Shown in pieces: positions 24,395-33,404 of a stretch of DNA of 43,136 bases; the first letter of the stretch is position 1; the number at the start of each line of letters is the position of its first letter. The DNA is taken from positions 1-43,136 of the forward strand of contig JAAWKM010000014.1 in assembly GCA_022797375.1 (NCBI GenBank). The letters run 5' to 3'. The position numbers were made by a program, and so were the translations under genes. The notes beneath the pieces are model-generated. The model was not told where the DNA came from. It saw nothing but the letters and a program-made list of their open reading frames with translations, and searched no databases. The DNA comes from Lachnospiraceae bacterium (GTDB taxonomy: Bacteria > Bacillota > Clostridia > Lachnospirales > Lachnospiraceae).

Positions 24395-24964
24395 TTATGC
24401 GGGTTCAGATATTTGGTTTCTTTTTAAATATTCATGTATTTTTTTCTTGTCTTTTCTCTTTCCTTTTAAAAGGATGAATTGTACAAGAGATACAATCTGT
24501 GAGTATTTAATTTTATATATATTATTGTTTTGCATTATTATAAGTTGTTCATATAAATTTAAAATAGACCAGCATTCTGTTATAATAACTGGGAAAATAG
24601 GTTTATTTTTGTATAAAAAGTATGAAAAAGGTAAAAAAAGGTCTAAAAATTTAGAATACTCTGTAATAATATTATTTATTCCATTATAAGTGTCTTGATA
24701 TTTTTTCATCCATTCATTACTTGTTTTTTTATTCCATTTTTCAGGAAGGGCATCTGCTAATTCATCTGCTATTTTGTTACATTTATCTATAATTCCAGCT
24801 CTTGTATTAGCAAAATTTTCAAGACATGTATATATATTTTTAAATTTTTCTACCTTAGTTTTTCTATATCCATGTTTTGCAGTAATTACACAATTTGCAA
24901 TTGATACAGAAAGCGTTAGTATTGTTGCAAAGATGTTTGTCTGGATAAAACTTATAAGATTCAT
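24395..24964 (-). CDS. Unknown protein with N-terminal TM segment (last gene of the CHAT/Ycf46 operon)
   Basis: A 189-aa protein. Residues ~4-28 form one hydrophobic segment followed by a basic patch (HGYRKTKVEK), predicting an N-out or hairpin-free membrane anchor. The remainder is helical, amphipathic and Lys/Asn-rich, with a second moderately hydrophobic stretch near SKFLDLFLPFSYFLY. Family not recognised. Its ATG overlaps the stop of the upstream gene (ATGA), and its ribosome site GGAGGAA lies inside that gene, so the two are tightly coupled. Being next to a protease makes it a candidate substrate, membrane target or immunity factor; this is inference from position only. Confidence 0.7.
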   Translation of the reverse strand: MNLISFIQTNIFATILTLSVSIANCVITAKHGYRKTKVEKFKNIYTCLENFANTRAGIIDKCNKIADELADALPEKWNKKTSNEWMKKYQDTYNGINNIITEYSKFLDLFLPFSYFLYKNKPIFPVIITECWSILNLYEQLIIMQNNNIYKIKYSQIVSLVQFILLKGKRKDKKKIHEYLKRNQISEPA

Positions 24965-25236
24965 TTATTCCTCCGTTTTCGTTTCTTTTTCTTTTCTTCC
25001 TCCTTTAACTTCTGGTTAAGTTTCATAATCTGTAATTTTCTTTCAAGTTTAGTGAAATCTGTATTACGTTCCTGCTCTATTGAAGCACGTTCAATATCAT
25101 ATCCAAAAGTATCAAGGATTATCTTTTTATATTTATCATATCCTTCCAAATCTGAATATTTTTTTTTCTGTATTTCTAGCCATTCTATGTATAAAGTTTC
25201 TATAATATCTAATACAATTTTATCGGATTCATCCAT
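24961..25236 (-). CDS. Small charged coiled-coil protein of the CHAT/Ycf46 operon
   Basis: A 91-aa protein, almost entirely helical by composition. Residues ~1-50 are mixed; residues ~60-91 are a Lys/Glu/Arg-rich coiled coil ending in a strongly basic tail (KEEEKKKKRKRRNK). It starts with ATG after AAGGAGG, the best ribosome site in the operon. No family recognised. It lies between the CHAT protease and the small membrane protein, overlapping the latter by four bases, which suggests the two products act together. Confidence 0.7.
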   Translation of the reverse strand: MDESDKIVLDIIETLYIEWLEIQKKKYSDLEGYDKYKKIILDTFGYDIERASIEQERNTDFTKLERKLQIMKLNQKLKEEEKKKKRKRRNK

Positions 25237-25267
25237 AAAAACACCTCCTTACAATAAAAAATTTACT

Positions 25268-27628
25268 TTAAATTCCAATAATAATAAATCCAGCCCAATA
25301 ATAAGGATGTTTATATGGAATTTCATCATCTTCTATATGCTTGATTATAGAATTAGTATTTTCATCATAGTATAATGATTTTTTTATTTTATTTGCTGTA
25401 CTGTTCCTTAGAAAATCCTTTGATTTTCTGAGAGATTCTCCAAGGTTCATATTTTTATTTATATAATTATCATAAAAACATTTCATCAATAATTCTGTTG
25501 CATAATCATCTGTTTTCCAAAGATTTAAGATAATATATCTAGCACCAGCATTTATAAAAGCTCTTCTTATACCTAAGCCAACATCATTATATATATTTTT
25601 TTCTTTTATTCCACAGACAGATAACACTACTAATTTTGTTTTATTCAAATCCATCTGGCTTATTTTTCTTATTGTAAGTAATTGTCCATCAGAGAAGATA
25701 AGGCCACTCTGGTCCATAGGGTCATTACTTGCCTGAAGGCCAGATTCGTTGAAATCAAATGAATGTGTGCATATATGAAATATACTAGCTGGTTTTTCAA
25801 GGCAGCTTGGAATAGCATCTTTTCCGGTTATAGGAGCCACTCCTAATATATTTGCTACAGCTTTTGCTTCTTCGTATGAAGCTGGTAAAACAGGATACTT
25901 TCCTTTAAAATCAGGACCTCCAATTACTATTGCTTCATTATTTATACTATCATTATGTTTATGTAGTATTTCTTTCCCACTATTTATATAAAAAATATTA
26001 TATTCATCCTCCATAAAACAGTCATACCAATAAAAACTTGGTAGTAACCCAAATGGTATACGGATAAAATTACCAGTAACAGCTAAATACAGATAGCGGA
26101 TTTCTCTTGTAAGTACTTCACCAATTGGTAATAGGATTTCTTTATATATATAGTGATATGCACGGGACATCTTTATCTGGGTATTGCTATGTTTGGTGAA
26201 AGCGTAATCAAGTATAAATTGTTCAAGCTCATCTAGCCATTGGTCAATTTCATCGCGTTTTCCTAGTTCAATAGCTATAATGTTATTTTTTGTAACTACA
26301 AAAACATAATAAAAATCTGTACCATATAAATCTGTCATTAGGGTAAATTCAAGAATAACCTGGTCATTTAAAAGTTTTCTGCATATATCAATAGAATCTA
26401 ATGAAAAAATTCCGCCACTTGCCTTTTCAAAGTATTCCAGTAGTTGTGATTTTTCTAACGATACATCAGCACCTTCTTTTTCCAGTTCTTCAATTTGTTT
26501 AAGCCTGAAAATTTTTTGGCCATGTTCAATACCTTTTAAATTAATAACACTACGGTCAAAACTTAGTGTTTTTGTACGTATTATTAAAGAATAAGTTTCT
26601 TTTGGACCACGTATTTTATAACACAAATATGCAATACGTTTTACTATATTCTCTAGCCCGTTTAAAAATTCTATTCTTTTCTGTTCTTCGCTGATAAAGA
26701 AAACTTGTGTTACTATATAATTTTCTATTTCCAAAATATTATCTAAGATTTTTTCAGCTTCGATACTATTTTTTTGTTCATATTTAAGAAAACATTCAAG
26801 CAACAGTATATTTATCTGGCTGGTAATATCAGTAATATCTTTTCTGTTATCCAGGAATTTTTCAGCAAAACTTGTATCTCCGTTTTTTAACATCCCTATT
26901 GCAAAATTATAGTCTGACCGTTGCTTAACAGAATTTACAAAACGTGACATTCCCTTACCTGGCATATATTTCTGGAATGAATTATTACCCTTGTCCATAA
27001 GTTCATATACTTTTTTTGCAAGTTCAATTTTCTTCCGTTCATTTAGGGAATCTATATCTATACTTTGGAGTTCCTTCATAAGAATTATTATTTCTGCAGC
27101 ATTATTTTTCATATCTTGATTATTCATTAATAAAGTATCTTTGCAGATATGTTTTACAAGGTAGTGAAATTTGCGTGGAAGTCCAAGAGGGTCAATCATA
27201 GTACGGTTTACTACTTCTTCAGTGTCATTTCCAAGTAACATTGATTGGAGAAGTAAGTTTTCCAGATTAAGATTTAAATCAGGTTTTATACATGAAAATA
27301 TATAAAATGTTTGTGATATTGTTTCTGTCATAAAGTCTTCTTTATTTTCATATATCCATTTAGTAAAATCATCTGTTACATTTTGTTCACTGAAGTTTTC
27401 AATAAACTCTCCTGCATCTGCCAGTTTTAATGCTGCTTTTTTATAGTCTGTATTATGTGATTCCCATATAAAGTCAAACAAATTTACAATATTGCAAATA
27501 TTACTATTGTTTCCATATATTTTTGCAATCTGTTTTCTTGCCTCACTAAAATATTCACAACTTTTATGCAGATTATATAAATCTAAATATTCGCATCCCT
27601 TTTTTAGTAAATAAAACAAATGTTCCAT
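25268..27628 (-). CDS. CHAT-domain protease with long helical N-terminus
   Basis: A 786-aa protein. Residues ~566-786 form a caspase-like CHAT domain: catalytic His near 622 in IFHICTHSF and catalytic Cys near 672 in LVVLSVCG, followed by GLGIRRAFINAGARYIILNLW and the closing PYYWAGFIIIG typical of the fold. Both catalytic residues are present, so it should be an active cysteine endopeptidase. Residues ~1-560 are helical and repetitive in character (TPR-like, not regular enough to count), the usual sensing or autoinhibitory part of CHAT proteins. No signal peptide or TM segment. Bacterial CHAT proteases commonly act as effectors in conflict and cell-death systems; the target here is unknown. 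Confidence 0.86.
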   Translation of the reverse strand: MEHLFYLLKKGCEYLDLYNLHKSCEYFSEARKQIAKIYGNNSNICNIVNLFDFIWESHNTDYKKAALKLADAGEFIENFSEQNVTDDFTKWIYENKEDFMTETISQTFYIFSCIKPDLNLNLENLLLQSMLLGNDTEEVVNRTMIDPLGLPRKFHYLVKHICKDTLLMNNQDMKNNAAEIIILMKELQSIDIDSLNERKKIELAKKVYELMDKGNNSFQKYMPGKGMSRFVNSVKQRSDYNFAIGMLKNGDTSFAEKFLDNRKDITDITSQINILLLECFLKYEQKNSIEAEKILDNILEIENYIVTQVFFISEEQKRIEFLNGLENIVKRIAYLCYKIRGPKETYSLIIRTKTLSFDRSVINLKGIEHGQKIFRLKQIEELEKEGADVSLEKSQLLEYFEKASGGIFSLDSIDICRKLLNDQVILEFTLMTDLYGTDFYYVFVVTKNNIIAIELGKRDEIDQWLDELEQFILDYAFTKHSNTQIKMSRAYHYIYKEILLPIGEVLTREIRYLYLAVTGNFIRIPFGLLPSFYWYDCFMEDEYNIFYINSGKEILHKHNDSINNEAIVIGGPDFKGKYPVLPASYEEAKAVANILGVAPITGKDAIPSCLEKPASIFHICTHSFDFNESGLQASNDPMDQSGLIFSDGQLLTIRKISQMDLNKTKLVVLSVCGIKEKNIYNDVGLGIRRAFINAGARYIILNLWKTDDYATELLMKCFYDNYINKNMNLGESLRKSKDFLRNSTANKIKKSLYYDENTNSIIKHIEDDEIPYKHPYYWAGFIIIGI

Positions 27629-27741
27629 TTCTTATCTATCACCATATATTATCCTTACATAAATAATTATTTCCGGGTTACTATTGTGCTTCATTAAAAA
27701 TGGGATACCTTTTATTATGTATATTAAATATTAGTGTAAGA

Positions 27742-28509
27742 TTACCGGTATCCTTTTTTCTCTTCATACTTTATTATTAAATCCCTGTTTGCAATTTCGT
27801 ATTTGTTAAAAAATTCTTCTTCATGGAAGGCTTCTGGCGCTATTGTGCCATTATACCAGCTAAGGGAATTAAAGTATTTTTGCAGTTCTTTGTCATCAAA
27901 CTTCCTTCCATGTCTTGCAAATAATTCATTTCTTGCTAGCCTTGCCTTGCTAGCTGTTAATCCTTTTAAGTCCTTCATTTTATAATATTTTCTATCACTA
28001 TCTGGGAGAATATATTCTGAAGAACTTTTTACAGATTTATTATTGCTTTTCTTGCTTTTATTTTTCTTCTTATTTGTATTATCTTTATTGTTTGCATTAT
28101 CTTTATTACTTATATTATCTTTATTGCCTGTATTTTTAATTGTTTCTATATCTCCGTTATCTGGTTTATCTTCTTTTATGTTGCTGGATGTATTGTTGTT
28201 TGTATTATTATCATAAGTATTATTCTGGGCATTTTCGGTATTAACGGCTTTATTACCATGCTTTAATTGTTTTATAGTAATGCCGGCTATTATTGCAATT
28301 AATAGTATTCCAGCTATTATTAAATATGTCCATTGTTCTTTCTGGTTTTTGTTTTTATTAGTTGGCTGTTTGTTATATGTAGTATCTGGCAGACCATCAG
28401 ATGTATTACCAGATACCGGGTTCTGGTTAATATTTTGGACAGGCTGGCCACATTTACTGCAAAATTTTGAATTTTCATCTATTTCATTTCCACAATTATT
28501 ACAAAACAA
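27742..28509 (-). CDS. Membrane protein: zinc ribbon, TM segment, Asn/Lys-rich linker, YARHG domain
   Basis: About 255 aa. The N-terminus is a zinc ribbon (FCNNCGNEID..KFCSKCGQP, four cysteines). A single TM segment follows (about residues 77-98, YLIIAGILLIAIIAGITI), then a low-complexity Asn/Asp/Lys linker of ~80 residues, then a C-terminal YARHG domain (ARNELFARHGRKFDDKELQ..SLSWYNG). The topology would put the ribbon inside and YARHG outside. A longer frame begins at an ATG at 28551, but the strong GGAGG lies downstream of it; the TTG at 28509 is preferred. The ribbon resembles that of the 106-aa protein of the same operon, suggesting a shared partner. Confidence 0.78.
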   Translation of the reverse strand: MFCNNCGNEIDENSKFCSKCGQPVQNINQNPVSGNTSDGLPDTTYNKQPTNKNKNQKEQWTYLIIAGILLIAIIAGITIKQLKHGNKAVNTENAQNNTYDNNTNNNTSSNIKEDKPDNGDIETIKNTGNKDNISNKDNANNKDNTNKKKNKSKKSNNKSVKSSSEYILPDSDRKYYKMKDLKGLTASKARLARNELFARHGRKFDDKELQKYFNSLSWYNGTIAPEAFHEEEFFNKYEIANRDLIIKYEEKKGYR

Positions 28510-28570
28510 TTTTATGTAATTCCTCCATTCAACAATATGGCAGGCTGGCATTTAGAATCCAGCCTGTATT

Positions 28571-29065
28571 TCATTTTATTACTGATACTATTCCCGATGT
28601 GTTGACTGCCCTGCAGCAATCTGTGTATACTTCAATAAAAGCATAACCTCCTCTTAAAGCAATTCCACGTGCTTTTTCCATGCCATCTGGTAATGGCTGT
28701 CCATATTTAAAGTGGCTTATTATTTGTCCAGGCATATCCAATGTATGGACTTCATAAGGCTTGCCAAGATAGCATATAGAAACATATCCTAATAAAGTTT
28801 TAAAAATTTCAGCTTCAGGAAACTCTTTTTTTATTGTATCAATAATTTCATTAACCTTTTGCTGGTTTTGTACATGTCCTCCTGCATCAAGGTTATGCAA
28901 TGCATCCATATATTCTTTTGACCTTTTTTTTCTAAGAATTCTGTCAAGTTCAAGTTTGTATGTATTGCTTTCATGCAGGTTTTGTTTATTATTAGAAACT
29001 GTTTCTAAAGCACATATGTTGTTTTCTGTTATTTTTTGTGCAGGCTTTAACATTATTTTTGGCAT
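28571..29065 (-). CDS. Unknown 164-aa protein of the CHAT/Ycf46 operon
   Basis: It starts at an ATG after CTGGAGGATA. The N-terminal ~55 residues are polar and helical. The C-terminal ~100 residues look like a compact alpha/beta domain: EIIDTIKKEFPEAEIFKTLLG, then YVSICYLGKPYEVHTLD, a GQPLPDGMEKARGIALRGGYA helix-loop and a final strand pair with a CC pair (VYTDCCRAVN) ending SGIVSVIK. No TM segment. I do not recognise the family. A 109-bp gap separates it from the upstream ATPase gene, the largest internal gap with that before the CHAT gene, so an internal promoter or processing site is possible. Confidence 0.7.
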   Translation of the reverse strand: MPKIMLKPAQKITENNICALETVSNNKQNLHESNTYKLELDRILRKKRSKEYMDALHNLDAGGHVQNQQKVNEIIDTIKKEFPEAEIFKTLLGYVSICYLGKPYEVHTLDMPGQIISHFKYGQPLPDGMEKARGIALRGGYAFIEVYTDCCRAVNTSGIVSVIK

Positions 29066-29174
29066 TTTTATCCTCCAGTCTATATAAAATAATTTCCCGC
29101 TTTAGTAATACATATGTCTTATTGGATTAATATAAATATCTTTAAGGGCGGGTTCTTGTAATTTGTAAGACAAG

Positions 29175-30749
29175 TTATACTAATACTTTGCGTGTTTTAG
29201 GTGTATTTTTTTTCTGGGTAAGCTCTTCCCCGCCTATAGGTTTTCCTGATGCTGGGACTGCACGTTCTTTTCCCCATTCCCTTATTGCTTCTATTTTTTC
29301 TGGGCTTGTCTGTGATAAAGGAACAACATTATTAAATGCATTTAATATATTTTCTTCATTAAGTACAAAGTTTTGGTTTGCTATGTCCCTGTATGCCAGG
29401 TCTCTGACAGTTGATTCCAGGTCAGCGCCAGTAAATCCTTCTGTGATGCTAATAATTTTATCTGCAAGCGGGCCTGCAAAATTTAATTTCAGATATTTTC
29501 TCATGTATAATGATAAGATATCCTTTCTTTCATCTGAGGTTGGCAAATCTATAAAAAACAGTTCATCAAACCGTCCTCTGCGTAGAAGTTCAGAGGGAAG
29601 CATTGAAACATCATTAGCTGTGGCAACAACGAATACTTGTTTTTTACATTCCTGCATCCAGAATAAAAACTGGCCTACCATTCTTGTAGAGACTCCGCCA
29701 TCAAGGGAATTTGTAGCTCCTGAAAGGCCTTTTTCAATTTCATCAATCCATAAAATACATGGTGCCATGTTCTCAGCGGTTACAAGAGCATCTTTTAGCT
29801 GTTGCTCAGACTGGCCAACATAGCTGCCTTGTACTGTTGCAAAGTCAAGCCTGTATAGAGGCAGTTTCCAGTTGGCTGAAATAGATTTAGCAGACAGTGA
29901 CTTTCCACAGCCTGGAACACCAACTAATAAGATTCCTCTTGGTGGCTGGAGCCCTTTAGCTTTTAGCTCATATCTTTTTTCAGAACTGAGGAGTTCTTTT
30001 TTTTCATCCAGCCATTTTCTAAGTCCCTCAAGACCTCCGACATCTTTTACATTATCATCTACATCTATTTTTTCTAAACCTGATATATCTGAAAAGAGCC
30101 TGTCTTTTGCATACCGTATTTCATCCATATCGGATTTTTTAATACTTCTGTTTGCTATTAATGCAGCAATAACATTTTCTGCTTCGATTTTTGTTACTCC
30201 TGATAAAATCAGGGCAGCTTCCCTTATGTCTGTATCATCCCATTCAATAGGAATTTCATTTCTATATTCATCAATAAAATTTTTGATTATAGTGTACATT
30301 TCATCTTCATTAGGAAGGTCTATTTTAATAATCATACCAAGCCTTTGCAACTGGTTCCATATAGGATTATTAGTTAAAACAATAACTTCCCCGCCAGCTT
30401 CATTAGCTAATTGTACAAGGTCATATATTTGTTTTGAATCATTATTATCTGAACTTAAATCTAATGCTTCTGTCATTATAAGAGTAAGATTTTGCCTGCG
30501 CCTCATTTGTTCACTCATATAATCTATGGCAGCATAAATTGATTTATCTTCACTCAGCACTTTTCCACTGACTAAATCACATACTCCTTTTGAAAGTGTA
30601 TGAATAAAAAAATCACATGATATTTCCTCTGATATTTCTTTTAGGATATCTAATGCCCGTGACCTTTCAATTGTATTAATTGCTATAAATGGTATTCTGG
30701 CAATGGCATATCTTTTTAACAGTTCTTTGCTTTTAAGTGTGTCACTCAA
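29175..30749 (-). CDS. Ycf46-like AAA+ ATPase
   Basis: A 524-aa AAA+ protein. The C-terminal half is a classical AAA module: Walker A GVPGCGKS (about 277-284), pore-loop region GSYVGQSE, Walker B CILWIDE (331-337), sensor 1 TAND (377-380), arginine fingers RRGRFDE (390-396) and a C-lid with GFTGADLE. The N-terminal ~210 residues are a degenerate AAA-like module (ARIPFIAINTIERSRALDIL, VIVLTNNPIW, IDLPNEDEM) without a P-loop, the layout of plastid/cyanobacterial Ycf46. It starts with TTG after AGGAGG, 13 bases behind the previous gene. Probably a protein remodeller or unfoldase; in this operon it could gate the CHAT protease. No FtsH/Lon-type protease domain is fused. Confidence 0.86.
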   Translation of the reverse strand: MSDTLKSKELLKRYAIARIPFIAINTIERSRALDILKEISEEISCDFFIHTLSKGVCDLVSGKVLSEDKSIYAAIDYMSEQMRRRQNLTLIMTEALDLSSDNNDSKQIYDLVQLANEAGGEVIVLTNNPIWNQLQRLGMIIKIDLPNEDEMYTIIKNFIDEYRNEIPIEWDDTDIREAALILSGVTKIEAENVIAALIANRSIKKSDMDEIRYAKDRLFSDISGLEKIDVDDNVKDVGGLEGLRKWLDEKKELLSSEKRYELKAKGLQPPRGILLVGVPGCGKSLSAKSISANWKLPLYRLDFATVQGSYVGQSEQQLKDALVTAENMAPCILWIDEIEKGLSGATNSLDGGVSTRMVGQFLFWMQECKKQVFVVATANDVSMLPSELLRRGRFDELFFIDLPTSDERKDILSLYMRKYLKLNFAGPLADKIISITEGFTGADLESTVRDLAYRDIANQNFVLNEENILNAFNNVVPLSQTSPEKIEAIREWGKERAVPASGKPIGGEELTQKKNTPKTRKVLV

Positions 30750-30762
30750 TTTTTTCTGCCTC

Positions 30763-31212
30763 CTAAAATTTATTTACTTTATGGTTCCTTACTATTGTTA
30801 ATAGTTTACCACTTCTATCTTTTCGTGCTGATTCTTCTAATGATGACTGCATTTTGCATGCTTGTGATATAACAAGCTGTTTATACTGTGAGCGCTCATT
30901 TTCTGGTAAAGCAGGCAGGTCAACGGCATCTGCTAGGAAAGCCATTTCTTTCCTAAGGGCAAGTAATGCCTGGACAATTTCTCTTTCTTCTGTATTTGGC
31001 CTGGAAATAGTTTTCTGGAATTTATCTGATGCCATATTCATTCTGCTATTTATAACATCAGCAAGTTTTTTCAAAAATCTTTCTGCAACACCTGTCTGCC
31101 ACTCTATTGTACCTTGTTTCATAGCATTTAAAATTTCTTCATCATTAGTTCTGGATTTAAGTTTATCAGTTATATTTACCCATTCAGCATATGTATGTGG
31201 CACTTCTGTCAT
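30763..31212 (-). CDS. Unknown helical 149-aa protein of the CHAT/Ycf46 operon
   Basis: All-helical by composition, no TM segment, no cysteine motif. The central region (LKKLADVINSRMNMASDKFQ; EREIVQALLALRKEMAFLADAVDLPALPE) looks like a helical bundle with a short proline-containing hinge, and the tail is basic (RNHKVNKF). No family recognised. It is packed between the zinc-ribbon gene (one base between the ATG and that stop) and the ATPase gene (13 bases), so it is surely co-translated with them and could be an adaptor for the ATPase. Confidence 0.7.
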   Translation of the reverse strand: MTEVPHTYAEWVNITDKLKSRTNDEEILNAMKQGTIEWQTGVAERFLKKLADVINSRMNMASDKFQKTISRPNTEEREIVQALLALRKEMAFLADAVDLPALPENERSQYKQLVISQACKMQSSLEESARKDRSGKLLTIVRNHKVNKF

Positions 31213-31213
31213 A

Positions 31214-31534
31214 TTATAATTTCCTCCGTACTAATAAATTTGGTGGTTCAATACTCCATTCTGGCAAACCTTTGGCAAAAATATTATCTGGCTCATGGTA
31301 ATTTTTTATGGCTGGTTTTATATAAGGAATATCTTCTTGCGTTGCTGCTATTTCTTCGTCTACATTCGTAAAAGGCAATATGTCCTGGTTGTTTGTGTCT
31401 GGTTCTTTTAGTTCCCTGCCACAGACTGAGCAAAAAGCTGCATCAGGGTTATTACCAGACTGGCATATGGGACATACTTTTATTTGTCCCGCTGCTGTTG
31501 AATTTATAAAATCTGCTCTTGATTTTGCATCCAT
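31214..31534 (-). CDS. Small zinc-ribbon protein of the CHAT/Ycf46 operon
   Basis: A 106-aa soluble protein. Residues ~20-42 form a zinc ribbon (VCPICQSGNNPDAAFCSVCG). The remainder is acidic and probably disordered, ending in a hydrophobic/aromatic tail FAKGLPEWSIEPP followed by LLVRRKL, which looks like a short binding motif rather than a folded domain. Its ATG follows GGAGGG, 13 bases after the 577-aa gene. Zinc ribbon plus linear motif suggests an adaptor that links two partners of the operon. Confidence 0.75.
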   Translation of the reverse strand: MDAKSRADFINSTAAGQIKVCPICQSGNNPDAAFCSVCGRELKEPDTNNQDILPFTNVDEEIAATQEDIPYIKPAIKNYHEPDNIFAKGLPEWSIEPPNLLVRRKL

Positions 31535-31547
31535 AAAAACCCTCCTT

Positions 31548-33281
31548 TTAATCTGTTACATTTATCCTGCGGCTAGTTCCAGATAATTTTCTTACATACT
31601 GGTCTGGTGATAACTGGTCAAGAAAATCAAGAACTTTACTGCTTTCACTGTCTTTTTCAGCAAATCCGGCCCTGAAGTCGACAACTTCAGCAATTGTAGC
31701 ACGTATAATTTTTGTTCCGCTTTCTTTCTTTTGTGCAAACTGGCTGTTTATATCTTCTTTTATTTTTTCAATGCTTTTTTTCTTTGAAAAATGATTAATT
31801 ATCATTCCTAATCCAGCTATAATTGCAACCAGGCCTAAAAGTGAACTATTTGAGATAAACATTATAAGACCAATTGCAGCTATTGCAGTTCCTCCATAAA
31901 GGCAGAACTTTTCAAATGCTGATAAAGTGACTTTTGCTAAGGCAGCTTCTTTTTCTGAATTTATTAATGTATTAAATCTTTGGATTATTTCCTGTTCATT
32001 ATTGCCATCTGTTGTTTTATCATTAAATGTGTCCACATTAATCTGTATTTCGTATGGAATTTTCATACGGTTTTTTGCAATAATATCATTGTATGCATCT
32101 GTAATCCAGTCTTTTGTCAATGATATAGCAAATTTCTGTGTTGAAATACTTGCATTAGAACTTTCAGGTTTCATTGCTGCATCAGTAAGCAGCTGTGTGA
32201 AATCTTTTGTTTTTTCAAATGCCGTTTTTTCAATAGCCATGCTTTTTCTGGCTCTTTTTTCATCACCATCAAAATCAGTAACGAATTTTTCAAATTTTTC
32301 TTTTTTTCTTAAAGGCAGTTCTTCATCATCAAAATCAGTAACAAGGCTGTTTAGTATTTCATCTAGTTGTGCTTTTATGGAATCAGAGGAAACTTCCTGT
32401 TCAAAAATAGCTGTAAAATAGTTTAGTATTTCTTCATGCAGCATAGCACCTTCCAGGATATCTTCCAGCACTGGCCAGGTTTTACTGTATTTTTTTAGGT
32501 ATGTATAAGAACTTGTATCAATTTTTTTTCGTTTCAGGTTAATTGCATCAGACCATTGCTCTGTCTGTTGTTCAATGAATCCTGGTTTTTCTGATAAATG
32601 TTTAAGCCATTTTGACATCTGGGCTGATATAATTCCCTCTGAATCAGCTCCCAATAGTCCGCTTGCATATGCATCTAATATAATAATAGTCTTCCGGTCT
32701 AATTTTTCTTCATCCTGGTTATCTAAATATCTTTGTGTCCACTTTAAGCATGCTTCTTTTCTTTCAGCCCTTCTGCATACCAGTGCAAAAAACAATGAAG
32801 TTTTTTCATCATTACGCTTTATTCCTTCCCTTAGTGCTTTTTCTGCTAATTCTGGTTCATCGTTTATCCATGCTGCTAATGCAACTAAGCAAGGTGCAAG
32901 CCAGTAATTTGGTGTTGAAATCATTAATTCTTCTGTAGCAGTGCTTATAGTTTCTTTTTTTACTATGCCTAAATCGTCGGCCTGGAGTATTCCAGTGACT
33001 GTCCTGCGTACAATTTCATAATGCCCATATTTTTGCTCTAACTCCTGTCTTATCTGGACAAGCCGTGTTTCAGCCTGTTGTAAGCGGTTAGCCATTTTTT
33101 GCGTGACAACAAAATCATGAAAGTCTTTTGCAAGGTTTCCAATTTCATTATAGACAATTTTAACATTACTATCTACTGCACCAACATTAGAATTAATTAC
33201 GCCTAAATCATCATGGATTGCACCTAGATTACGTTCTATAGCGGTTAAATCAGCTGGTCTTATAGATGTCACTTCTGCCAT
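31548..33281 (-). CDS. Coiled-coil/TPR-like protein with C-terminal TM hairpin (first gene of the CHAT/Ycf46 operon)
   Basis: A 577-aa protein. Residues ~10-90 form a coiled coil of heptad-like repeats (NLGAIHDDLGVINSNVGAV...). Residues ~110-260 look like TPR/HEAT-type helices (WLAPCLVALAAWIND, AEKALREG, KASLFFALVCRRAERKEACLKW style). Two adjacent hydrophobic segments (about 458-498, separated by a polar NSS) form a TM hairpin, followed by a cytosolic tail. A repeated VTDFDDE/VTDFDGDE occurs near the middle. The N-terminus should be cytosolic. No family recognised. It leads the operon, has a good GGAGG site, and may be the membrane scaffold or sensor. Confidence 0.75.
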   Translation of the reverse strand: MAEVTSIRPADLTAIERNLGAIHDDLGVINSNVGAVDSNVKIVYNEIGNLAKDFHDFVVTQKMANRLQQAETRLVQIRQELEQKYGHYEIVRRTVTGILQADDLGIVKKETISTATEELMISTPNYWLAPCLVALAAWINDEPELAEKALREGIKRNDEKTSLFFALVCRRAERKEACLKWTQRYLDNQDEEKLDRKTIIILDAYASGLLGADSEGIISAQMSKWLKHLSEKPGFIEQQTEQWSDAINLKRKKIDTSSYTYLKKYSKTWPVLEDILEGAMLHEEILNYFTAIFEQEVSSDSIKAQLDEILNSLVTDFDDEELPLRKKEKFEKFVTDFDGDEKRARKSMAIEKTAFEKTKDFTQLLTDAAMKPESSNASISTQKFAISLTKDWITDAYNDIIAKNRMKIPYEIQINVDTFNDKTTDGNNEQEIIQRFNTLINSEKEAALAKVTLSAFEKFCLYGGTAIAAIGLIMFISNSSLLGLVAIIAGLGMIINHFSKKKSIEKIKEDINSQFAQKKESGTKIIRATIAEVVDFRAGFAEKDSESSKVLDFLDQLSPDQYVRKLSGTSRRINVTD

Positions 33282-33375
33282 TTATTCTCCCTCCTTATAA
33301 AATATAATTGGCATTTTCATAAATAGTCTGGTAATATAATATTTCAATTTCATTTTTATATAAAATGTATATGCT

Positions 33376-33404
33376 ATTATACTCCAATAAATCTTTTTTT
33401 ACAA
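33376..33404 (-). promoter_or_regulatory. Sigma-A-like promoter of the nine-gene CHAT/Ycf46 operon
   Basis: Minus strand: TTGTAA (33404-33399), 17 bp, TATAAT (33381-33376). The leader to the start codon at 33281 is about 88 nt. It is the best promoter found for the operon; the two ~110-bp gaps inside it might hold weaker ones. Confidence 0.65.

What the first reader, a model, noticed from the sequence alone, without database searches (positions are those of the whole stretch)
24395..33404. Nine-gene minus-strand operon combining a Ycf46-type AAA+ ATPase, a CHAT protease, two zinc ribbons and three membrane proteins
The genes are packed with gaps of 1-32 bases or overlaps, plus two gaps of about 110 bases, behind one recognisable promoter. 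Four products have identifiable domains (CHAT, Ycf46 AAA+, zinc ribbon, zinc ribbon-TM-YARHG); five have none that I recognise. CHAT proteases are commonly effectors in bacterial conflict systems, and an AAA+ ATPase with adaptors fits a regulated trigger. I know of no named system with this gene set. A model: the 577-aa membrane protein and zinc ribbons form a scaffold or sensor, Ycf46 remodels it, and CHAT cleaves a target, perhaps the two small products encoded after it. A housekeeping or developmental role remains possible.
Basis: partly seen in the sequence, partly recalled or inferred. Interest (0 to 1): 0.88.

Follow-up and report, generated by a model that had tools for sequence, protein, structure and literature searches.

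The report
Mobile five-gene bacterial membrane motor cassette
Five of the nine genes form a travelling cassette, found in many unrelated bacteria, that encodes an ATP-driven motor with a membrane protein and three helper proteins of unknown kind, and a few relatives carry it joined to toxin-like genes that look aimed at rival bacteria.

Summary
The nine minus-strand genes are real, but they are not one system. The first five (577-aa membrane protein g1, zinc-ribbon protein g2, 149-aa g3, Ycf46-like AAA+ ATPase g4, 164-aa g5) are a conserved unit. In 51 of 54 related loci with enough flank, g1, g3, g4 and g5 lie together on one strand in one of two orders, nearly always with a g2-type tail gene between g1 and g3. 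They co-diverge (Mantel r 0.95-0.97), are patchy (2 of 28 genus genomes) and occur across phyla, on plasmids, in a Streptococcus satellite-phage record and on two contigs classed as viral. The CHAT gene and the two genes after it occur in 0 of 91 loci. I found no named system with this gene set in PADLOC, Pfam, NCBIfam or ten paper searches. In six clostridial loci a HerA-type ATPase gene abuts g1; in five of these the g4-g5 slot holds a polymorphic-toxin-like gene, against 0 of 34 other loci. I read the cassette as a membrane-anchored AAA+ remodelling machine used in bacterial conflict; that role is inferred from context, and most copies, the window's included, carry no toxin-like gene. Known defence genes are not enriched beside it.

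The parts
31548..33281 (-). g1: 577-aa membrane protein; long N-terminal helix (13-85), helical solenoid, C-terminal hydrophobic segment and long helix
   Evidence: (AlphaFold pLDDT 81.5, pTM 0.59); present in all 91 loci by construction of the search
31214..31534 (-). g2: 106-aa zinc-ribbon protein ending in the tail LPEWSIEPPNLLVRRKL
   Evidence: tail motif in the g1-g3 interval of 27 of 51 loci in the strict form LPxW..PP and of 22 more in a relaxed form written after seeing the data
30763..31212 (-). g3: 149-aa protein, no known domain
   Evidence: in 82 of 91 loci
29175..30749 (-). g4: Ycf46-like AAA+ ATPase, 524 aa, TTG start
   Evidence: in 81 of 91 loci; Walker A pattern in 68 of 68 and Walker B in 67 of 68 relatives; C-terminal RRxPhiPhi-type tail in 67 of 68
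28571..29065 (-). g5: 164-aa protein, alpha-beta domain with no significant match to a solved fold
   Evidence: in 79 of 91 loci; single match in 25 of 26 genomes or records
27742..28551 (-). g6: accessory zinc ribbon-TM-YARHG protein; zinc ribbon-TM proteins recur beside related cassettes
   Evidence: 16 of 39 loci; 0 of 202 control ORFs
25268..27628 (-). g7: CHAT-domain protein with His and Cys motifs (618, 669; roles recalled); not part of the conserved cassette
24961..25236 (-). g8: 91-aa protein, not part of the cassette
24395..24964 (-). g9: 189-aa protein with N-terminal hydrophobic segment, not part of the cassette
29066..29174 (-). g4-g5 gap: the slot that holds toxin-like and small partner genes in five HerA-linked relatives; empty here

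Best explanation
SHOWN: window 33281-28571 (minus) carries a five-gene cassette, g1-g2-g3-g4-g5, which recurs as a unit in widely separated bacteria and has moved between lineages; of the four genes after it (g6 zinc ribbon-TM-YARHG, g7 CHAT, g8, g9) only g6 belongs to a type that recurs beside the cassette. INFERRED MECHANISM: g4, a Cdc48/Ycf46-class AAA+ ATPase, works as a ring on the inner face of the membrane, where the long-helix and solenoid membrane protein g1 is its platform and remodelling substrate; g2 presents its conserved [LF]PxWxxxPP tail as handle or docking peptide; g3 and g5 are adaptors, and the basic-aliphatic terminal tails of g4, many g3 and some g1, and the g5 N-terminus, may meet in a common pocket. 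ATP hydrolysis by g4 loads, disassembles or opens the membrane complex. INFERRED ROLE: conflict with other bacteria or mobile elements. One branch of the family couples the machine to a HerA-type ATPase and to toxin-like/partner gene pairs, as an assembly or delivery engine. The window copy is the stand-alone form, with neither beside it.
For: Unit: g3, g4 and g5 beside g1 on one strand in 51 of 54 loci with room (28 g1-first, 23 g5-first); distances co-diverge over 68 loci, Mantel r 0.947-0.966, 0 of 500 permutations as high. Patchy: the g1 family is in 4 of 200 family genomes, 5 of 341 class genomes and 2 of 28 genus genomes, own genome counted each time and not all with the full cassette. 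Spread: relatives in Clostridia, Streptococcus, Bifidobacterium, Selenomonas, Bacteroidota, Paraburkholderia, Acidobacteria and Actinomycetospora, Komagataeibacter and Comamonas plasmids, the satellite-phage record Javan368, two contigs classed as viral, one with a serine recombinase about 2.2 kb on; streptococcal g4 nested among Lachnospiraceae with starred branches. Conflict link: HerA gene within 19 bases of g1 in six clostridial loci; toxin-like gene in the g4-g5 slot in 5 of these 6 and 0 of 34 others (Fisher p 9e-6); Gln_amidase toxin domain, SUKH-1 partner; a second HerA-toxin-cassette in the g5-first lineage (L180). Motor: AAA motifs conserved.
Against: Of 40 loci in g4-g5 order 35 have no toxin-like gene in the slot, so toxin delivery is not the general role. 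A profile of one toxin N-terminal segment matched 2 of 18 carrier genomes, both used to build it; it missed two further toxin carriers (G742, G149), so it cannot exclude other toxins. HerA-toxin genes also occur without cassette genes in the 19 kb read around L177. Flanking genes are not richer in known defence families than control regions of the same genomes. The toxin-slot count is post hoc and the loci are not independent by descent; L051, with a HerA-like gene after g5 and no toxin, was counted among the 34. No interaction, secretion or phenotype was tested. The g1 model is moderate (pTM 0.59).
Confidence: 0.45

Rival explanations
1. Envelope-stress or membrane-quality-control machine (PSP/ESCRT-like in logic): g4 remodels a g1 polymer at damaged membrane; mobility reflects niche adaptation, and the toxin link is secondary.
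For: g1 is a long-helix membrane protein with an AAA partner; divergent g1 relatives sit in SPFH-zinc-ribbon, membrane-protein and zinc-ribbon operons (L008, L022, L009); passages report that YdjI (SPFH) and the membrane proteins YdjG and YdjH recruit PspA in B. subtilis (PMC8581546) and that PspA sometimes co-occurs with a protein of two AAA+ domains whose N-terminal copy is inactive (PMC11237479); recurrent zinc ribbon-TM neighbours.
Against: Rare and patchy (2 of 28 genus genomes); no PspA or ESCRT-III match in the five core proteins of the window; tight toxin-slot association in one branch.
Confidence: 0.28
2. Stand-alone anti-phage defence cassette: g1 is a membrane effector released or opened by g4 on infection.
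For: Compact mobile cassette in a satellite-phage record, plasmids and contigs classed as viral; weak Foldseek resemblance of the g1 model to ClyA-type pore formers AhlB, SmhB and MakA (25 of the 50 listed matches; probability up to 0.99 but E >= 0.0096 and TM <= 0.33; the ClyA grouping is recalled); a TIR-domain protein two genes after g5 in L025.
Against: PADLOC has no model matching g1 or g3 and only E 0.016 for g5; no enrichment of known defence families beside it; the Javan368 record ends exactly at the g5 stop, so its boundary may be a prediction artefact.
Confidence: 0.2
3. One reading: a nine-gene system in which CHAT is the effector and g8/g9 its targets.
For: Nine genes in a row with short gaps; CHAT His and Cys motifs present.
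Against: g7, g8 and g9 in 0 of 91 cassette loci; CHAT in 1 of 200 family genomes at E <= 1e-25, the window's own; the sister genome G736 has the five genes and none of g6-g9 beside them.
Confidence: 0.04

Closest known systems
Ycf46 / Cdc48-VCP class AAA+ ATPases
   Same: g4 AAA core with Walker A and B patterns; best solved relatives are VCP-like ATPases and Cdc48
   Different: N-terminal 229 residues match no solved chain at E <= 1; four partner families unknown; the two non-cassette relatives found in 196 order genomes at E <= 1e-60 (L013, L014) have no cassette gene nearby and lie beside a gene that looks like a radical-SAM enzyme by eye
[quoted passage not shown] 2012, PMC3482391)
   Same: five HerA-linked relatives show related N-termini, exchanged C-terminal domains and an adjacent small gene, one of them SUKH-1
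   Different: the delivery types named in the passages seen do not include a HerA plus Ycf46-type AAA plus zinc-ribbon set; most cassettes have no toxin-like gene beside them
PSP/YdjGHI and ESCRT membrane-remodelling systems
   Same: AAA ATPase with a long-helix membrane protein and zinc ribbons; SPFH in some operons with g1 relatives
   Different: no PspA/ESCRT-III match in the window's five proteins; mobile and patchy
CHAT-based conflict systems
   Same: g7 has a CHAT domain with His and Cys motifs
   Different: not linked to the cassette in the other 91 loci

Membership tests
Ycf46/Cdc48-class AAA+ ATPase (g4) | conserved Walker A, Walker B and arginine-finger-region patterns | tested here: met
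   68, 67 and 65 of 68 relatives; motif roles recalled
Ycf46/Cdc48-class AAA+ ATPase (g4) | degenerate N-terminal AAA domain, as recalled for Ycf46 | tested here: inconclusive
   residues 1-229: no PDB match at E <= 1; no library here has a Ycf46 model
Polymorphic toxin system | toxin with shared N-terminus and exchanged C-terminal toxin domain | tested here: inconclusive
   met for five HerA-linked relatives (N-termini low in complexity); no such gene beside the window's cassette
Polymorphic toxin system | adjacent immunity gene | tested here: inconclusive
   SUKH-1 in L043; unnamed small partners in others, function untested
Known anti-phage defence system (PADLOC) | match of core proteins to a defence model | tested here: not met
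   g4 matches IetA models through its AAA part (best 3e-32), g2 LmuB at E 5e-4 over a zinc-ribbon stretch, g5 DndH at E 0.016, g1 and g3 nothing
Known anti-phage defence system (PADLOC) | enrichment beside defence genes | tested here: not met
   58 families hit among 142 flank ORFs, 221 families among 142 control ORFs (families, not ORFs, are counted, and 25 of each list were shown)
IetAS | IetA ATPase with a subtilisin-like IetS (recalled) | tested here: not met
   NCBIfam IteA 83.5 bits against cut-off 510; no peptidase match in g1-g5
PSP/ESCRT-III membrane-remodelling system | PspA, Vipp1 or ESCRT-III homologue | tested here: not met
   no such Pfam match in g1-g5 of the window at E <= 1
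ClyA-type alpha pore-forming proteins (g1) | significant fold match | tested here: not met
   no match at E <= 0.001; best of that type E 0.0096
CHAT conflict system | CHAT gene conserved with the ATPase | tested here: not met
   0 of 91 loci

The most novel reading that the evidence does not exclude
The five-gene cassette is the chassis of an undescribed class of bacterial membrane machine: a Cdc48-like AAA+ ring acting on a membrane polymer (ESCRT-like in principle), mobile between phyla, which when joined to HerA forms a new, non-T6/T7 route for delivering polymorphic toxins between bacteria, and when alone acts in defence.
Probability: 0.2. Interest if true: 0.93.

Novelty: categorically new. 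Interest (0 to 1): 0.74.

Why it matters
A conserved, mobile, five-gene cassette with four protein families that no library searched here names, at least one without a significant match among solved folds, spans several bacterial phyla, including gut Clostridia and oral streptococci. If it is a conflict machine, it adds a new ATP-driven membrane apparatus to the known set and gives a direct way to test how HerA-linked toxins leave the cell.

Tried and rejected
The nine-gene CHAT model (0 of 91 loci). Defence-island enrichment: 20 carrier genomes; 142 of 157 flank ORFs scanned (8 cut by length and size limits, 7 left out by hand as overlapping or edge ORFs) and 142 of 149 control ORFs from regions of the same genomes; the controls hit more defence families (221) than the flanks (58). 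Single flanks did hold Wadjet-, Kiwa-, methylase- and viperin-type matches. Pfam scans of the same two sets show no integrase or transposase family among the 25 families listed of 141 (flanks) and of 192 (controls); the rest of the lists was not shown. Empty-site comparison at nadC-spoVAD: in the six genus relatives read, neither flank held any of the nine genes and the two genes lay on different contigs or, in G724, about 20 kb apart in the other order, so no clean empty site. g5 fold search against PDB and viral models: nothing at E <= 0.001. E. coli genomes: no match with 2.5 kb of the Paraburkholderia cassette by distant DNA search. First genome-contig scan with the single g1 sequence: 0 confirmed of 76 stretches. 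g1 as a ClyA-type pore former: too weak. Not in print: rests on ten searches of an open-access library and on found passages, not whole texts, of five papers; most subscription papers and all preprints were out of reach.

Row counts: the 91 loci hold duplicates (L007/L032, L020/L036, L021/L059, L023/L066, near-identical L104/L105) and the divergent L008, L009 and L022; the 54-locus count uses the 79 loci only. One search used 68 loci that had one full-length copy each of g1, g3, g4 and g5, after L007, L020, L023 and L104 were dropped by hand. In one search the toxin-positive loci were set by hand; L051 (HerA-like gene after g5) was counted as HerA-negative (counting it as positive gives 5 of 7 against 0 of 33), and L055 (HerA before g1, contig ends after g1) could not be counted. 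Tail patterns were written after seeing the data.
Full report
1. Observation. Gaps are 13, 1, 13, 109, 19, 113 and 31 bases and one 4-base overlap. Pfam confirms CHAT, AAA, YARHG and Zn_Ribbon_1 above the curated cut-offs; the 106-aa protein's ribbon is below them. No library used here has a Ycf46 model, so that label is recalled. Promoter-like sites in the region are no more frequent than chance: 54 found, 52.7 expected.

2. Which genes belong together. I searched with g1, the 577-aa protein. Its family is rare: 4 of 200 family genomes, 5 of 341 class genomes and 2 of 28 genus genomes, the window's own counted each time. Not all are full cassettes: of the other family and class hits, G124, G631 and G669 have g1 to g5, G149 a divergent version, while in the stretches read G042, G260 and G456 have a g1-type gene without g4. 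With g4 itself, 3 of 196 order genomes match at E <= 1e-60, own included; the other two are in other surroundings. A profile scan of named genomes returned 79 loci. Over 91 loci in all (some duplicates), g3, g4 and g5 were found in 82, 81 and 79; CHAT (g7), g8 and g9 in none. Of the 54 loci with at least 4 kb before and 5 kb after g1, 51 hold g1, g3, g4 and g5 on one strand, 28 in the order g1-g3-g4-g5 and 23 as g5-g1-g3-g4; the other three hold only g1 of these four. Between g1 and g3 lies a short gene whose product ends in [LF][PS]xWxxxPP plus basic residues: 27 of 51 in the strict LPxW..PP form, 22 more in a relaxed form, 2 without; one of these two, L098, has the motif with one extra residue. 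In many g1-first loci it carries a zinc ribbon; streptococcal and several g5-first copies lack it. The other genome of the genus that has the cassette, G736, shows the five genes, split over two contig ends, and none of g6-g9.

3. Mobility. Pairwise distances of g1, g3, g4 and g5 correlate at r 0.947-0.966 over 68 loci; the highest of 500 permutations was 0.132: the cassette is inherited as a unit. Hosts include Clostridia, Streptococcus, Selenomonas, Bifidobacterium, Paenibacillus, Bacteroidota, Paraburkholderia, Acidobacteria, Myxococcales and Actinomycetospora (several are metagenome bins, in which foreign contigs are possible), two Komagataeibacter plasmids and a Comamonas megaplasmid, and a 2.1-Mb Fusobacterium record filed as a plasmid. 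In a quick g4 tree with SH-aLRT support only, streptococcal copies nest deep among Lachnospiraceae with starred branches, and Fusobacterium joins Selenomonas; several long branches are unsure. A Streptococcus satellite-phage record carries the cassette at one end, but the record ends exactly at the g5 stop, so the boundary may be a prediction. Four sister copies are 93-99% identical in DNA; three have a small integrase-like ORF within 0.6 kb before g1, the fourth a 421-aa one about 3.9 kb after g5. Two contigs classed as viral carry it; in one, a serine recombinase (Pfam) follows about 2.2 kb on, with two more recombinase-like ORFs by eye. g5 has a single match in 25 of 26 carriers searched.

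4. The proteins. g4: AAA core closest in sequence to VCP-like ATPases and Cdc48 among solved chains; motifs conserved. g1: AlphaFold model pLDDT 81.5, pTM 0.59, with a 73-residue N-terminal helix, a helical solenoid, a beta hairpin and C-terminal long helices with a hydrophobic segment. Foldseek finds nothing at E <= 0.001; 25 of the 50 listed weak matches are the pore formers AhlB, SmhB and MakA (E from 0.0096, TM at most 0.33), which I treat as a lead only. g5: model pLDDT 83.2, no PDB or viral fold match at E <= 0.001. g3: no PDB relative better than E 0.0067. A basic-aliphatic terminal tail (RRxPhiPhi type) ends g4 in 67 of 68 relatives, against 2 of 174 control ORFs, and g3 in 28 of 68; a looser form is at g1 C-termini in 33 of 68 (controls 23 of 174) and at g5 N-termini in 52 of 68 (controls 40 of 174) (pattern chosen after inspection, relatives not independent). 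I read it as a possible shared docking element.

5. The toxin branch. In six clostridial loci (L027, L030, L032, L034, L039, L043) a HerA-type ATPase gene (by similarity; Pfam DUF87 in the three tested) ends within 19 bases of g1 or overlaps it, preceded by a protein of about 300 aa with an N-terminal zinc-ribbon pattern. In five of these six the g4-g5 slot holds a protein with a related N-terminus plus, in all five, at least one further small or middle-sized gene; in the other 34 loci of that gene order no such protein was found (Fisher p 9e-6). Three of the 34 have other inserts there (L029, a DUF4428 protein; L035, a membrane protein; L041, no forward gene). The N-termini are acidic in four of the five and Ser/Gly-rich in L043, related to one another in chains rather than all pairs, and low in complexity, so the E-values are soft. 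The five C-termini are of four kinds: a Pfam Gln_amidase papain-fold toxin domain (L032 = L007); an HNH-like one by eye with a SUKH-1 partner (L043); an HExxH one in L027 that is related to those of L009 and L180; and an HExxH pair, L030 and L039, related to each other. Except for Gln_amidase, Pfam names none of them. A second lineage with the other gene order (L180) shows HerA, an HExxH protein, then g5-g1-g3-g4, and the divergent L009 cluster has HerA, an HExxH/small-gene pair, three g1 copies and an AAA gene. Against this: a HerA gene and relatives of the L009 pair occur with no cassette gene in the 19 kb read around L177; a profile of one toxin N-terminal segment matched 2 of 18 carrier genomes, both used to build it, and missed the toxin carriers G742 and G149, so it speaks only about that segment; the window genome has no match to it and no HerA of this type at E <= 1e-60. 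So toxin handling is an option of the family, not shown to be its general job.

6. Accessory neighbours. g6 (zinc ribbon-TM-YARHG) has counterparts: 22 of 135 ORFs adjacent to the cassettes of 39 loci (L024-L067 without the streptococci and Bifidobacterium; mostly Clostridia) fit a zinc ribbon-TM pattern, in 16 loci; six of the 22 are the HerA-linked proteins of about 300 aa. In 202 control ORFs from 20 regions of carrier genomes none fits (67 of these from the six Firmicute regions). Their C-terminal domains vary: YARHG, M48 peptidase, and a C-type-lectin match just below cut-off.

7. What it is not. PADLOC gives AAA similarity of g4 to IetA models, a weak zinc-ribbon-stretch match of g2 and nothing for g1 or g3. 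Flank ORFs are not richer in defence families than control ORFs (58 against 221 families at E <= 1e-10, 142 ORFs each). It is not PSP or ESCRT by membership, since no PspA or ESCRT-III match was found in g1-g5, though passages of PMC11237479, PMC8581546 and PMC10936438 describe related logic. Passages of PMC3482391 and PMC7159879 did not show this gene set. None of these papers was read whole.

8. Verdict. A real, mobile, apparently undescribed five-gene cassette; the CHAT protease and the last two genes are bystanders. The mechanism (AAA+ remodelling of a membrane complex, with tail-bearing adaptors) is inferred from anatomy; the biological role (conflict, with a toxin branch) is supported by context only.

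Noticed in passing
L177 6420-14605 (G009): Dynamin-like GTPase plus HerA-like ATPase plus a metallopeptidase-like/96-aa pair related to the pair in L009, with no cassette gene in the 19 kb read: a HerA-toxin module that may exist on its own.
   Followed up: partly
L180 15447-17543: An E2-like protein (by eye) and a ThiF protein with a weak JAB match downstream of a cassette, as in bacterial ubiquitin-like operons.
   Followed up: no
L025 15895-18222: A TIR-domain protein of 775 aa lies two genes after g5.
   Followed up: no
L008 1485-6151; L022 8686-13276: Divergent g1 relatives sit in SPFH-zinc-ribbon, membrane-protein and zinc-ribbon operons without the AAA gene, resembling YdjI operons.
   Followed up: partly
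L179 14754-17701: A large serine recombinase (Pfam) and two further recombinase-like ORFs (by eye; one short, one cut by the end of the stretch) start about 2.2 kb after the cassette.
   Followed up: partly
window 25268-27628: The CHAT protein's matches on plasmids (35 records) are mostly cyanobacterial, under 30% identity in the ten rows listed and covering at most 75% of it there.
   Followed up: partly
window 24313-24264 (minus strand, approximate): An inverted repeat (AAGACCTTG...CCAAGGTCTT) after g9 may be a terminator; the scan did not list it.
   Followed up: no
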